From Planctomyces sp. SH-PL14 (GTDB taxonomy: Bacteria; Planctomycetota; Planctomycetia; Planctomycetales; Planctomycetaceae): a stretch of 64,000 nucleotides of DNA. The notes beneath the pieces are model-generated. The model was not told the origin of the DNA. It saw nothing but the letters and a program-made list of their open reading frames with translations, and did not search any database. Every line of letters begins with the position of its first letter. Position 1 is the first letter of the stretch. The stretch spans positions 4,978,001 through 5,042,000 of the forward strand of contig NZ_CP011270.1 in assembly GCF_001610835.1 (NCBI RefSeq), written 5' to 3'. A program made the translations under genes and the position numbers. Shown one piece after another: positions 2,055 to 5,498 of this stretch.

Positions 2055-2083
2055 TTGACGGCGCCTACAACTGTCGGCATGAT
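2055..2083 (+). promoter_or_regulatory. Promoter of the blaI-blaR1-like operon
   Basis: TTGACG (2055-2060) and CATGAT (2078-2083) are separated by exactly 17 bases. The start would fall near 2090, leaving a leader of about 70 bases before the repressor ATG. Both BlaI-type operators described below overlap this promoter. Confidence 0.55.
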
Positions 2084-2101
2084 GCTGCCTACGAGTGTAG
2101 G
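2064..2101 (+). promoter_or_regulatory. Twin BlaI-type operators
   Basis: Two near-perfect 14-base dyads lie here: CCTACAACTGTCGG at 2064-2077 and CCTACGAGTGTAGG at 2088-2101. Both fit the same palindrome (CCTACA-N2-TGTAGG), each with one mismatch, and both carry the TACA/TGTA core known from BlaI/MecI operators. The first fills the -35/-10 spacer and the second covers the likely transcription start. Binding by the product of the next gene would therefore shut off its own operon. Confidence 0.6.
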
Positions 2102-2159: not shown

Positions 2160-2552
2160 ATGAGCAGGCCGGACGATCTTCCCGCGCTCTCGGAAGCCCA
2201 GTGGGAGATCATGAACCTCGTCTGGGATCGCGGCGAGTGCTCGGTCGCGGACGTCTGGAAGGTGCTCCAGGAACGCCGCGGCGTGGCCCGGAACACCGTC
2301 CAGACTCTGATGATCCGCCTGAAAGAGAAGGGCTGGCTCTCCGCCCGGGAAGTCGATGGGGCGTTTCTCTTCACCCCGACCGTCTCGCGGGACTGCTCTC
2401 AGCAGTCGACCGTTCAGCGGCTGATCGAGACCGTCTTCAACGGTTCGGCGGAAGGGCTCGTGCTGTCGCTGCTCCACGGCGGGGCGCTCTCCACCGGGGA
2501 AGTCGAACGATTGCGGCGGCTCATCGCCTCCTCACGGAAGAAGGAATCATGA
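2160..2552 (+). CDS. BlaI/MecI/CopY-family transcriptional repressor
   Basis: The 130-residue product has the family length and layout. It starts with LSEAQWEIMNLVW, has a winged-helix region (SVADVWKVLQERRGVARNTV, residues about 28-47, then TLMIRLKEKGWL), and ends in the short helical dimerisation and cleavage region. In characterised members the repressor binds its own promoter as a dimer and is inactivated by the BlaR1/MecR1 membrane protease. Here the next gene encodes such a protease-like sensor and overlaps by four bases (ATGA), and twin operators precede the gene. The inducing signal need not be a beta-lactam: the window has no beta-lactamase and planctomycetes carry many such pairs. 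Confidence 0.9.
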   Translation: MSRPDDLPALSEAQWEIMNLVWDRGECSVADVWKVLQERRGVARNTVQTLMIRLKEKGWLSAREVDGAFLFTPTVSRDCSQQSTVQRLIETVFNGSAEGLVLSLLHGGALSTGEVERLRRLIASSRKKES

Positions 2553-5023
2553 CGACCTGGAATGAGTCTCTGCTGATCGCGACCGCCCAGGTGACCGGCA
2601 TCACAGCGGTCGCCCTCGCGCTGGCGTGGAGCGCCCGGCGACGGATCGCCTGGGTTCACGCTCTGGGTGTTGTCGGCCTCGTCCTGGCGCTCGCCAGCCC
2701 GGTGCTGACCCTCGCCCTGCCGGCACGGACGTGGTGGCGAGTCCCTTTCCTGGCTTCGCCCCCGGTGGTCGGACCGCAGTGGGCCTCGGCGGAAGCGGGC
2801 TCGCCCGTTGGACAGCCCCCCGGACCCGTCGCCGCGGGCACACCGGCGCTCCCCGCAGCAGAGCAGCCGGCTCGTTCAACCGTCGTCGCGACTTCGGCGT
2901 CGCCAGGGCCGGCGCTGGTCCGAAGCGGTCGCGACTCGCAGCCGGGAAGCGCCGAAGCATCAGAAACGGGATGGGTCAGGAACTGGATCGCCGTTCTCTG
3001 GGGCGGTCTCTGGGTGGCCGGCTCGATGGTGGTTGCCGCGCGGAGCTTCACCCAGCATCGGCGAATCCGCGCGCTCGTGCGACAGGTGTTGGAGACGCCG
3101 CAATTGGATCGCGAGCGTTCCGATCGGCTGCGGGCGGTCTCGGAGCGGGTCCGCGGGATTGTCGGCTTGCGGACGTTTCCGGCGGTCCGGATCTCGGACC
3201 GGATTCCGATGCCGCTGGTCCTGGGACTTTGGCGACCGGTCATCGTCATTCCGCTCGACCTGCTGCGGGCCGGATGCGAAGCGAAACTGCGAGAGGTGTT
3301 GATTCATGAGGCGGCGCATGTCGCTCGCCGTGATGCCTGGGGCTGTGTTCTGCAGCGGGTGGCCGCCATCGGCTGGTGGTGGCATCCCGGGGTCGCACTC
3401 CTGAACCGCGTGGCGAACCGGTCTCGCGAAGAACTCTGCGACAACTTCGTCCTCGGCTGCAGCGATCCGGCGCACTATGCCGAGACGCTGCTGGAACTGA
3501 CGGAGCGCTGTTCGCAGGCGGGCCGCCTGACTCCCGCGCTGGGGCTGCTCGAGCCGCGATGGACCCTGGAGTCGCGCATCAAGGGGTTGCTCCACCCCGG
3601 CCGAGACGTGGCGACGCGGATCCGTCGGCGAACGATGGCCGGCATCGTCCTGCTGCTTGGCATCGTCTGCGGTGTGGTTGGCGGTATCCGTGCGGTCGAG
3701 AACGGACGGCTCCCGGGCCCCGGGGCGAAGCATGACTCATCCACGGTCGCGAAGGCCGCCGCACCCGAGGCGGCCGATCCTCCGCTGCGGAAGGTCACCG
3801 TGCGGGGACGGTGTCTCGATGAAGACGAGTTTCAGCCGCTGACCGATGTGCGGGTCCTCGTCGTCGCCTGGTCTCCCAGGCTCCGTCGCCACATCGTCGC
3901 TGGTGAAACGAAGTCCGGAGCGGACGGCGCGTTCGAACTGAAGGACCTGGACATCGCCGCAGCCGCCGGAACCCATCCAACGGCGGTCGCCGCCCTTCCG
4001 GGATATGCGTCCACCCTCGTGGCGCTGAAAGGCCAGGGCGAGGGGGTGATCGAGCAGGATCTGGAGTTGTCCTCCCATCCGGGAAGCCTGTCGGGAACGG
4101 TTCGCGATGCGGAAGGGCGTCCCGTGGCGGGCGTCACCGTCTCTCTCCCCTGTTTCACGGACGACCCGCTTCCCGGGATTCGAAGTGCCGTGACCGACGA
4201 CCGGGGGCGGTACGTGATCCCGGACCTGCGGCGATGGAGTTCGGAGTCCTACAGACGCACGAACTCAAAGACGGGGGTCACGATGGTCACGACGGGGTGC
4301 GTCTTCCATCTGCGGCACCCCGACTATCCCCTGACCACGGCGATGCACTCGGCCATTCCGCAGGGGGTGGATGTCACTCTCTATTCGCCCGCCGTTGTCG
4401 AAGGGCGGGTGCTGGATGAGGTGACAGGGCGACCTGCGGCCGGGGTTGCCGTCTGTGCCCAAGGTGTGGCGCGGCATGGGTGGTACGAGACCACGACGGA
4501 TGCGGACGGCCGGTATCGTCTGCGGATGACCCGGGATCACTACAATCTCTGGGCCAACGCCGCTGACCGGATCGCCGTGGCGGCCAAAGCGATCAAGGCG
4601 GAGCGGGGCAGGACCGTGACGGGGGCCGATATCCGTCTCGTCGGCGGTGGGTTTGTCGTGGGGACGGTCCTGGGGGCTGACGGGAAGCCGATCTCGCCGG
4701 CGAAGGAGTCCCCTGTCCTGATCGCCCACTACGGTCCGGCCCGTCCGCGGACGGGAGCCGCCGTGACATCGACGAAGGTCGAGGCGGATGGAACGTACTC
4801 TCTGCGTGTGGCTCCCGGACGGAACTACGTTTACTTCATGAACGGGTCCGGTCGGTCTGCGGAGGTGCTGGTGGCGGACGGACACGACACGACGTTGAAC
4901 TTCGATCTCCGCGAGCCGCCTTCATCCGACGGGGAGGGGCTGCTTGAGAAGGACTCCGACGAGCGTCTGGCCCAGACGATTCGGGCGGCCGCGGCGCGGG
5001 AGGATGAGGCGGATTCGAAGTGA
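2549..5023 (+). CDS. BlaR1-like M56 metalloprotease fused to carboxypeptidase-regulatory-like modules
   Basis: I place the start at 2549, where ATG overlaps the repressor's stop, giving 824 residues; the frame is open further upstream, but that region is the repressor gene. The N-terminal half has three or four membrane segments (residues about 5-25, 30-55, 148-170 and 360-380). The zinc-protease motif H253-E-A-A-H257 and a downstream SREELCDNFVL, which probably supplies the third ligand, mark peptidase family M56. About 430 residues follow that are absent from classic BlaR1. They hold roughly four beta-sandwich modules of the carboxypeptidase regulatory type (for example GSLSGTVRDAEGRPVAGVTV and VVEGRVLDEVTGRPAAGV). 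No penicillin-binding sensor domain is visible. The modules probably lie outside the membrane and may replace the usual sensor. The substrate is presumably the repressor made by the previous gene. Confidence 0.85.
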   Translation: MTTWNESLLIATAQVTGITAVALALAWSARRRIAWVHALGVVGLVLALASPVLTLALPARTWWRVPFLASPPVVGPQWASAEAGSPVGQPPGPVAAGTPALPAAEQPARSTVVATSASPGPALVRSGRDSQPGSAEASETGWVRNWIAVLWGGLWVAGSMVVAARSFTQHRRIRALVRQVLETPQLDRERSDRLRAVSERVRGIVGLRTFPAVRISDRIPMPLVLGLWRPVIVIPLDLLRAGCEAKLREVLIHEAAHVARRDAWGCVLQRVAAIGWWWHPGVALLNRVANRSREELCDNFVLGCSDPAHYAETLLELTERCSQAGRLTPALGLLEPRWTLESRIKGLLHPGRDVATRIRRRTMAGIVLLLGIVCGVVGGIRAVENGRLPGPGAKHDSSTVAKAAAPEAADPPLRKVTVRGRCLDEDEFQPLTDVRVLVVAWSPRLRRHIVAGETKSGADGAFELKDLDIAAAAGTHPTAVAALPGYASTLVALKGQGEGVIEQDLELSSHPGSLSGTVRDAEGRPVAGVTVSLPCFTDDPLPGIRSAVTDDRGRYVIPDLRRWSSESYRRTNSKTGVTMVTTGCVFHLRHPDYPLTTAMHSAIPQGVDVTLYSPAVVEGRVLDEVTGRPAAGVAVCAQGVARHGWYETTTDADGRYRLRMTRDHYNLWANAADRIAVAAKAIKAERGRTVTGADIRLVGGGFVVGTVLGADGKPISPAKESPVLIAHYGPARPRTGAAVTSTKVEADGTYSLRVAPGRNYVYFMNGSGRSAEVLVADGHDTTLNFDLREPPSSDGEGLLEKDSDERLAQTIRAAAAREDEADSK

Positions 5024-5075
5024 GTGCTCCGTGCAGGATGGCAAAAGGCCGCCCTCGCCGGATGGACTCTGTTTG

Positions 5076-5498
5076 TTCGAACCCAACGTGCCACGGCAGC
5101 CGGGGTCAAGGGGCCAAAAAACAACACAGGCCACCTTGCCGCCGGAGGCGATTCAACGAGGAACCGTGGTAGGTGTCGGACGATCGCTTTGTGGGACCGG
5201 CGTTGAGAACTCACCGCTCGCGGCGGAATCCCCGCGGGTTGGTGAGGGGGCATCCGGCACGGTGTCCGCGCTTGGACACACCCTCCTTCAGACATCACCC
5301 GACGGTCAGGCCTCCGGCGGGCAAGGGGCCAAAAAACAACACAGGTCCCCCTTGCATCCCCTGACCAAGGTGCCCCTGGACCCGATGAGGGCCAAATGAT
5401 CTTGCGTTGCGCCGCTCTACCTTCCGCCTTCAGCCTGAACCCCTTCCGCCTCCTCCACACTCCCCCTTGCATCCCCCACCAGCGTACCCCTGGCCCCG
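5076..5498 (+). repeat. R1 repeat, copy A (with T tract and duplicated tail)
   Basis: Forward copy of the dispersed R1 element, 52 bases after the blaR1-like stop. It starts with a variant of CAAACCCAACGTGCGACGGC, carries the left hairpin with the long loop CCAAAAAACAACACAGG, the central CTTTGTGGGACCGGCGTTGA and the right arm GCCTCCGGCGGGC, then a second long-loop hairpin. A pyrimidine-rich T tract follows at about 5417-5452. A second partial copy of the right end (CCCCCTTGCATCCCCCACCAG) follows at about 5459-5498. Confidence 0.85.

What the first reader, a model, noticed from the sequence alone, without database searches (positions are those of the whole stretch)
3760..5023. BlaR1-like protease with carboxypeptidase-regulatory modules in place of a sensor domain
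After the M56 protease part, the protein carries about 430 residues with roughly four short beta-sandwich modules. The beta-lactam sensor of classic BlaR1 is missing. The modules may sense a cell-surface carbohydrate or protein, giving a planctomycete variant of the BlaR1-BlaI switch with a different signal.
Basis: partly seen in the sequence, partly recalled or inferred. Interest (0 to 1): 0.5.

Follow-up and report, generated by a model that had tools for sequence, protein, structure and literature searches.

The report
BlaR1-type receptor with exchanged outer domain
A planctomycete carries a relative of the staphylococcal penicillin-sensing switch BlaR1/BlaI in which the penicillin sensor is replaced by four transthyretin-like modules, and its relatives swap this outer part for quite different domains while keeping the same inner switch, which suggests an uncharacterised family of receptors for other signals.

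Summary
Confirmed. Window 2160-2552 is a BlaI-family repressor; 2549-5023 (824 aa) is a BlaR1-type M56 membrane protease. Its membrane-protease part models onto S. aureus BlaR1 (Z 18.8, 247 residues), but residues 413-784 form four transthyretin/carboxypeptidase-regulatory-like sandwiches. No penicillin-binding family matches, and the topology evidence puts the modules outside. Twin palindromes (2064-2077, 2088-2101) sit on the promoter. Two or more such sites occur in 19 of 22 related blaI promoters (shuffles: 0.01 of 22; own-genome paralogs: 1 of 9), although the attached sensors differ: transthyretin-like modules, HEAT-type, WD40, LRR. Two sister genes are 60% identical up to the last membrane helix and unrelated after it. 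All 17 M56 genes of this genome have an upstream BlaI. Best reading: a BlaI/BlaR1-type protease-repressor switch with an exchangeable periplasmic input domain and an unknown, non-beta-lactam signal. New variant of a known kind; function inferred, not shown.

The parts
2055..2083 (+). putative promoter: TTGACG (2055-2060), 17-bp spacer, CATGAT (2078-2083)
   Evidence: by eye against the recalled sigma-70 consensus; TTGAC[AG] lies 3-4 bases before operator 1 in 10 of 22 related promoters, by eye
2064..2077 (.). operator 1, CCTACAACTGTCGG, inside the -35/-10 spacer
   Evidence: one mismatch to CCTACANNTGTAGG
2088..2101 (.). operator 2, CCTACGAGTGTAGG, 24 bp after operator 1
   Evidence: one mismatch to CCTACANNTGTAGG
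2160..2552 (+). blaI: BlaI/MecI/CopY-family repressor, 130 aa; S103-L104 aligns with the N101-F102 cleavage site of S. aureus BlaI
   Evidence: PF03965 102.3 bits, cut-off 22.6; alignment with 1sd4; site from PMC9834060 passages
2549..5023 (+). M56 membrane protease with extracytoplasmic modules, 824 aa
2555..2713 (+). transmembrane helices 1 and 2 (residues 3-28 and 33-55)
   Evidence: model; hydropathy
2714..2968 (+). extracytoplasmic loop 1 (residues 56-140), Pro/Ala-rich, predicted disordered
   Evidence: 58-145 under pLDDT 50
2969..3052 (+). transmembrane helix 3 region (about residues 141-168)
3305..3319 (+). zinc site HEAAH (residues 253-257)
3428..3442 (+). third zinc ligand motif E294xxxD298, 41 residues after the first His as in BlaR1 (H201/E242)
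   Evidence: BlaR1 numbers from PMC9834060 passages
3626..3682 (+). transmembrane helix 4 (residues 360-378); ectodomain exchange in relatives occurs just after this helix
3785..4054 (+). module 1 (residues 413-502), transthyretin-like
4082..4348 (+). module 2 (residues 512-600)
4373..4648 (+). module 3 (residues 609-700), best CarboxypepD_reg match
4649..4900 (+). module 4 (residues 701-784), with conserved H-x-GP-x-RP and APG-x-N motifs
4955..5017 (+). C-terminal helix (803-823), where most M56 relatives continue into a further ~400-residue domain

Best explanation
The two genes form a BlaI/BlaR1-type protease-repressor switch. BlaI binds the two palindromes over its own promoter and represses the blaI-m56 operon. 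The M56 protein sits in the inner membrane with four helices, a cytoplasmic zinc protease site, and four transthyretin-like modules in the periplasm where classic BlaR1 has its beta-lactam sensor. Binding of an unknown ligand or partner by the modules (possibly through the long disordered loop EL1) is passed through helix 4 and activates the protease, which cuts BlaI at the position homologous to the S. aureus site (S103-L104) and derepresses the operon. Shown here by computation: gene pair, catalytic motifs, BlaR1-like model, module fold, conserved twin operator-like sites, exchangeable ectodomain. Inferred: repression, sensing, activation and cleavage. Unknown: the signal, and any target gene outside the operon.
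For: M56 and BlaI families over their cut-offs. The full-length model aligns to BlaR1 cryo-EM chain 8exs over residues 4-342 (Z 18.8, rmsd 3.2, 247 aligned); the best non-BlaR1 row has Z 11.6. HExxH to E spacing of 41 as in BlaR1. Modules match carboxypeptidase D domain II (1qmu, Z 11.4, rmsd 1.7, 79 aligned) and the SusC N-terminal extension (9hfj, Z 11.0). Two or more operator-like sites in 19 of 22 related blaI promoters against 0.01 of 22 expected in shuffles. CCTACRNNTGTMGG occurs in the 8.44-Mb genome only twice, both here. Topology: Arg-rich cytoplasmic flank of TM4 (by eye), BlaR1 layout, and five module proteins without a detected M56 part that start with a hydrophobic signal-like segment (L076, L078, L080, L084, L089). 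Sensor exchange: a starred protease-tree group of five rows (window, L069, L075, L119, L120) holds three ectodomain labels; L119 and L120 share 59.6% identity over 401 residues up to TM4 and no similarity after it at E<=1e-3.
Against: No experiment. No ligand and no target gene outside the operon. The window protein lacks the C-terminal domain of its relatives, so it may not signal as they do. The BlaI P1' position is Leu rather than Phe. The full-length model is only moderate (mean pLDDT 71.7, pTM 0.43). The operator consensus was drawn from some of the same promoters, those promoters are related by descent, and 1 of 9 paralog control promoters (L019) also reaches two sites at the same loose threshold. 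Reversed-pattern controls are commoner than the motif (5 against 2, 27 against 11), so the argument rests on where the sites lie, not on their number.
Confidence: 0.7

Rival explanations
1. The modules are a scaffold, adhesin or protein-contact segment and not the sensor; the signal is read by loop EL1, the membrane part or a separate partner protein.
For: The fold is a generic extracellular beta-sandwich also found in pilins and adhesins. Orthologs with the same BlaI and operator class lack the modules (L075, L120, L124). Against L069 the modules are no more conserved than the protease core (47.3% and 47.6%).
Against: The modules are better conserved than the whole membrane-protease part (window against L069: 47.3% modules, 40.5% residues 1-385; L092: 49.5% and 42.0%), with invariant H, N, W and R residues (those rows were found through two module motifs, so this is biased). 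Exchange at the TM4 boundary is what a swappable input would look like.
Confidence: 0.2
2. The window copy is a crippled receptor: loss of the C-terminal domain, perhaps linked to the interspersed repeat that begins shortly after its stop codon, left it unresponsive or constitutive.
For: That domain follows the modules in 9 of 10 named loci and, by eye, in L069-L074, L079 and L081 (L073 and L074 are the same contigs as L091 and L090, L071 and L072 near-copies of L070). No remnant in the window (best E 2.6). Repeat copy at about 5050-5400.
Against: Open frame, intact zinc motifs, intact twin operator-like sites and intact BlaI. The domain is not universal: L077 and L082 (M56) and the stand-alone L076 and L080 also lack it by eye, and WD40 and LRR types were not found to carry it.
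Confidence: 0.12
3. The protease acts mainly on substrates other than BlaI, and the operon autoregulation is secondary.
For: In G000 no operator with at most one mismatch outside this promoter; in 9 genomes the strict motif lies at this blaI class in 10 of 11 places.
Against: 17 of 17 M56 genes over the cut-off in this genome have an adjacent BlaI gene, arguing that BlaI is the partner.
Confidence: 0.08
4. It still senses beta-lactams.
For: Homology of the protease part to BlaR1/MecR1 only.
Against: No penicillin-binding family at E<=1; the C-terminal model is four transthyretin-like sandwiches.
Confidence: 0.03

Closest known systems
BlaR1/BlaI and MecR1/MecI of S. aureus and B. licheniformis
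   Same: 4-TM M56 zinc protease with HExxH...E at 41-residue spacing, BlaI-family repressor, paired palindromes with a TACA/TGTA-type core, C-terminal domain outside
   Different: penicillin-binding sensor replaced by four transthyretin-like modules; EL1 about twice as long (about 85 residues against 41); blaI precedes m56 with a 4-nt overlap; no beta-lactamase among the two following genes scanned (the rest of the window was not annotated)
Carboxypeptidase regulatory-like / transthyretin-like domains (carboxypeptidase D, SusC N-terminal extension, HIUase/transthyretin)
   Same: fold of the modules tested, Pfam PF13620
   Different: here four in tandem on a membrane protease; no enzymatic or transport partner in cis
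CopY/CopR copper repressors
   Same: same repressor superfamily and TACANNTGTA-type operator core (PMC7253601 abstract and passages)
   Different: a protease partner instead of direct metal sensing; TIGR02698 scores 72.9 against a cut-off of 121.95

Membership tests
Peptidase family M56 (BlaR1-type membrane protease) | Pfam PF05569 above its gathering score | tested here: met
   81.3 bits, cut-off 31
Peptidase family M56 (BlaR1-type membrane protease) | HExxH plus ExxxD gluzincin motif with BlaR1 spacing | tested here: met
   H253EAAH, E294ELCD, 41 apart; BlaR1 H201/E242
Peptidase family M56 (BlaR1-type membrane protease) | BlaR1 membrane-protease fold | tested here: met
   model against 8exs Z 18.8, 247 aligned, rmsd 3.2; predicted model, not a structure
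BlaR1/MecR1 beta-lactam receptor | C-terminal penicillin-binding, class-D-like sensor domain | tested here: not met
   no such Pfam match at E<=1; the C-terminal part models as four sandwiches, modules 1 and 3 matched to transthyretin-like domains
BlaR1/MecR1 beta-lactam receptor | NCBIfam NF000326 blaR1_generic cut-off | tested here: not met
   44.9 bits against 400
BlaR1/MecR1 beta-lactam receptor | signal-dependent cleavage of BlaI | not testable with these tools
   needs protein; the aligned site is S103-L104
BlaI/MecI repressor family | Pfam PF03965 above its gathering score | tested here: met
   102.3 bits, cut-off 22.6
BlaI/MecI repressor family | palindromic operators at its own promoter | tested here: met
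   sequence evidence only; binding not tested
CarboxypepD_reg (PF13620) | gathering score and fold | tested here: met
   93.5 bits, cut-off 32.3; 1qmu Z 11.4

The most novel reading that the evidence does not exclude
Planctomycetes run a whole class of transmembrane receptors on one BlaR1-type chassis, with periplasmic input domains exchanged at the TM4 boundary and each pair wired to a largely private repressor-operator code. In the window's branch the switch controls only itself, so the inducible product is the receptor and its ectodomain, which signal peptidase may release at the signal-peptide-like end of TM4 (IRA|V here; VRA|V in L069, L075, L119 and L120).
Probability: 0.2. Interest if true: 0.72.

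Novelty: new variant of a known kind. Interest (0 to 1): 0.5.

Why it matters
BlaR1 is known as a beta-lactam receptor. If the same protease-repressor chassis is used with many unrelated input domains, it is a general signalling type alongside two-component and ECF/anti-sigma systems. The natural exchange pair L119/L120 makes its sensor logic testable with simple chimeras. This genome alone has 17 such pairs.

Tried and rejected
Beta-lactam sensor: rejected. Chance operators: rejected on position and conservation, not on number (see the Against line). Gene-neighbour target: reading frames of 100 aa or more flanking the pair were compared in 17 loci (flanks up to 4 kb downstream, some very short or absent); apart from blaI and frames overlapping it, only L126 and L129, of one genus, share neighbours, so no conserved target gene was seen. 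Distal regulon in G000: 38 places with up to 2 mismatches, 2 of them with at most 1, both at this promoter; at least two of the other 36 are promoters of other BlaI genes of this genome (L031, L034); the reversed-pattern control has 393, but its base make-up differs. Six of the 36 were read (five frames shown per stretch): L145, L146 and L147 lie inside a listed reading frame; L143, L144 and L148 do not. L148 lies about 180 bp before a 608-aa frame with a CxxCH motif; it is a single site with 2 mismatches, neither accepted nor excluded as a target. First named-genome scan with the whole protein found no relative. L093 looks split or frameshifted and was not used. L071 and L072 are near-copies of L070; L090 and L091 are the same contigs as G023 and G017 (L074, L073). 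One search used one label per protein; L119's CReg label rests on 31.7 bits, just under the cut-off, and its ectodomain shows no similarity to the window's at E<=1e-3; the window-L069 pairing itself is not starred (93/27). The signal-peptidase-site count (38 of 41) uses a very loose motif without a control and proves nothing by itself. The palindrome scan has no shuffle control. Rfam found nothing in the window. Ten literature searches listed no paper on planctomycete M56 ectodomains; one search asked for 'planctomycet' as a whole word and so could not match 'Planctomycetes'; the library lacks most subscription papers. The structure lists test mainly modules 1 and 3; module 4 has one row (3hn5, Z 9.4), module 2 was barely tested.

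Full report
WHAT IS THERE. The gene pair is blaI (2160-2552) and an M56 membrane protease (2549-5023, 824 aa) whose start overlaps the blaI stop by 4 nt. BlaI scores 102.3 bits against PF03965 (cut-off 22.6); the protease scores 81.3 bits against PF05569 (cut-off 31) and 93.5 bits against CarboxypepD_reg PF13620 (cut-off 32.3, three stretches). No penicillin-binding or beta-lactamase family appears among the 13 families listed at E<=1. NCBIfam's blaR1_generic reaches 44.9 bits against a cut-off of 400, so it should not be filed as BlaR1 in the strict sense.

STRUCTURE. A model of residues 391-824 from 10 sequences has mean pLDDT 84.1 and pTM 0.74 and is four beta-sandwiches plus a C-terminal helix. 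Aligned to solved structures, single modules match carboxypeptidase D domain II (1qmu, Z 11.4, rmsd 1.7, 79 residues), human carboxypeptidase D (5aq0, Z 11.1) and the SusC N-terminal extension (9hfj, Z 11.0); the list mostly tests modules 1 and 3. The full-length model is weaker (mean pLDDT 71.7, pTM 0.43), but its residues 4-342 align to S. aureus BlaR1 chains (8exs Z 18.8, rmsd 3.2, 247 residues). The zinc motif H253EAAH and E294xxxD298 are 41 residues apart, as are H201 and E242 of BlaR1 (BlaR1 data from passages of PMC9834060). All 17 M56 proteins over the cut-off in this genome have HExxH and an acidic residue at +41; two (L032, L034) have Asp there instead of Glu.

TOPOLOGY. BlaR1 has its C-terminal domain outside (PMC9834060 passages), and the window's four helices and the Arg-rich N-side of helix 4 fit the same layout. 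Independently, homologous module proteins in which no M56 part was found begin with a hydrophobic signal-like segment (L076, L078, L080, L084, L089; hydropathy only, no signal-peptide predictor; L078 is cut by its contig end).

RELATIVES AND A MISSING DOMAIN. The organism belongs to a planctomycete family: G023 and G017 of that family have contigs of the same length as named Planctomycetales and Planctomycetaceae contigs. With the whole protein as query, 32 of 150 genomes of the GTDB family, the own one included, match at E<=1e-30, some only in the protease part or only in the modules. Ten named loci were found by two module motifs. In 9 of these 10 the modules are followed by a homologous domain of about 400 residues; by eye the same is seen in L069-L074, L079 and L081, while L077, L082 and the stand-alone L076 and L080 lack it. 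I call it HEAT-containing because PF03130 matches its two copies in L075 (25.1 bits for the protein, cut-off 20.9) and, just under the cut-off, paralog L019 (20.5 bits); L069 itself gives no HEAT match. The window protein stops in the linker before this domain, with no remnant in the window (best E 2.6). Some 20-30 bp after its stop begins a copy of a roughly 330-bp interspersed repeat (the query began at 5040). A link between the two is a guess.

OPERATORS. Two near-palindromes, CCTACAACTGTCGG and CCTACGAGTGTAGG, lie 24 bp apart, the first inside the spacer after TTGACG. In 22 upstream regions of related blaI genes (the window's and those), 19 have two or more sites with at most 3 mismatches of 12 to CCTACANNTGTAGG, against 0.01 of 22 expected in 200 dinucleotide shuffles each; L127 has none, L130 and L131 one each; spacing is 21-35 bp, most often 23. 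Nine of the own genome's paralog promoters served as a control: L019 has two sites (3 mismatches each), L030 and L034 one each (3 and 2 mismatches), six none. The core agrees with the TACANNTGTA core reported for CopY/BlaI/MecI (PMC7253601, abstract and passages). In G000, CCTACRNNTGTMGG occurs twice, both here (reversed-pattern control 5). In nine genomes, CCTACRNNYGTAGG occurs at 11 places, 10 of them at this class of blaI promoter and one elsewhere (G156:C501); G159 and G142 have none; the reversed-pattern control has 27 places. So the motif is not frequent, but where it occurs it marks these promoters. No regulon outside the operon is visible; weaker sites are not excluded.

EXCHANGEABLE SENSORS. 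A search with BlaI found 18 matches in 14 of 170 family genomes at E<=1e-28, own genome included. Ectodomains beside this BlaI class: modules plus HEAT-containing domain (L069, L086, L087, L088, L092), two HEAT-containing domains without modules (L075), WD40 propeller (L083, L120, L126, L128, L129; L132 by eye, not scanned), LRR (L124), CarboxypepD_reg plus PD40 (L125), several CarboxypepD_reg (L131), weak CarboxypepD_reg (L119, 31.7 bits, under the cut-off), HEAT_2 (L123, 20 bits, under the cut-off), none (L127). L121, L122 and L130 gave no complete protein. On a protease-core tree of 41 rows, window, L069, L119 and L120 form a starred group (98/92), with L075 next (99/94); these five carry three ectodomain labels. 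All labels together need 12 changes (least possible 5; shuffled mean 17.0, as low in 0 of 200), so ectodomain type is partly inherited and repeatedly exchanged. L119 and L120 are starred sisters (96/85): 59.6% identical over 401 residues up to TM4, then no similarity at E<=1e-3, with BlaI 76% identical. Conversely, L070 and L074 share the module type with the window (48% and 37%) but have distant BlaI (25% and 27%) and membrane-protease parts (27.9% and 28.5%).

ONE GENOME, 17 PAIRS. G000 has 17 M56 genes over the cut-off and one weak match. Each of the 17 has a BlaI gene directly upstream (gap -4 to 130 nt to the start I chose, profile trained on 8 of them). Nine of the 17, the window's included, have CarboxypepD_reg above its cut-off; others match Secretin (L020), HlyD_3 (L023), WD40 (L028) or PD40 (L033); in L021, L026, L030 and L034 nothing outside the protease part reaches its cut-off; no transpeptidase match appears (E<=1 for the window, E<=0.001 for the 16 others). 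In 15 of 17 promoters the scan printed an inverted repeat, and these mostly differ between pairs; L028 gave none, and the window's own imperfect sites are not caught by that stricter scan; there was no shuffle control, and a few (L024, L031) resemble the window's core. Family genomes of at least 95% completeness have 0-31 M56 genes (51 of 61 have any; 2 of 14 control genomes).

HOW IT PROBABLY WORKS. BlaI represses its own operon; the periplasmic modules receive an unknown input; the protease is activated through TM4; BlaI is cut at S103-L104, which aligns with N101-F102 of S. aureus BlaI. Gene arrangement, motifs, models, operator-like sites and exchange are shown by computation. Repression, sensing, activation and cleavage are inferred from BlaR1. 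With no visible outside target, either weaker sites exist, or the protease has other substrates, or the receptor is its own product. TM4 ends in IRA|V here and VRA|V in L069, L075, L119 and L120, resembling a signal-peptidase site; SpsB cleavage of BlaR1's sensor is reported in PMC9834060 (passages). That shedding step is speculative here.

NOVELTY. The fusion is visible in Pfam scans, and M56 proteins with other C-termini are probably common in databases (recalled). Ten literature searches listed no description of it (call numbers and their limits in Tried and rejected). I rate it a new variant of a known kind.

Noticed in passing
window 5050-5400: Copy of a ~330-bp interspersed repeat with 39 other long copies of 79-87% identity listed across the genome (only 40 of 1178 first-look candidates were scored, so a lower bound); it contains two 32-nt direct repeats 215 bp apart (91% alike) and folds somewhat better than shuffles (z -2.3); no Rfam match.
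   Followed up: partly
L076 6183-9356: A sigma-70-type (ECF-like) sigma factor gene, a 368-aa frame without Pfam match, and a secreted-looking stand-alone copy of the four-module ectodomain lie in a row, suggesting the same module set is also used with another regulator type.
   Followed up: partly
L032 and L034 (own-genome M56 paralogs): Third zinc ligand Glu is replaced by Asp (DILAD, DYIAD), so these may be altered or inactive proteases.
   Followed up: no
M56 TM4 ends (41 proteins): Helix 4 with its c-region often looks like a cleavable signal peptide (IRA|V, VHA|Q, SRA|Q and similar), which may mean ectodomain shedding by signal peptidase.
   Followed up: partly
L033 and L028 (own-genome paralogs): M56 proteins with PD40 or WD40 propeller ectodomains and own BlaI; L033 is 1732 aa with a weak HEAT_2 match (under its cut-off) at the C-terminus.
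   Followed up: no
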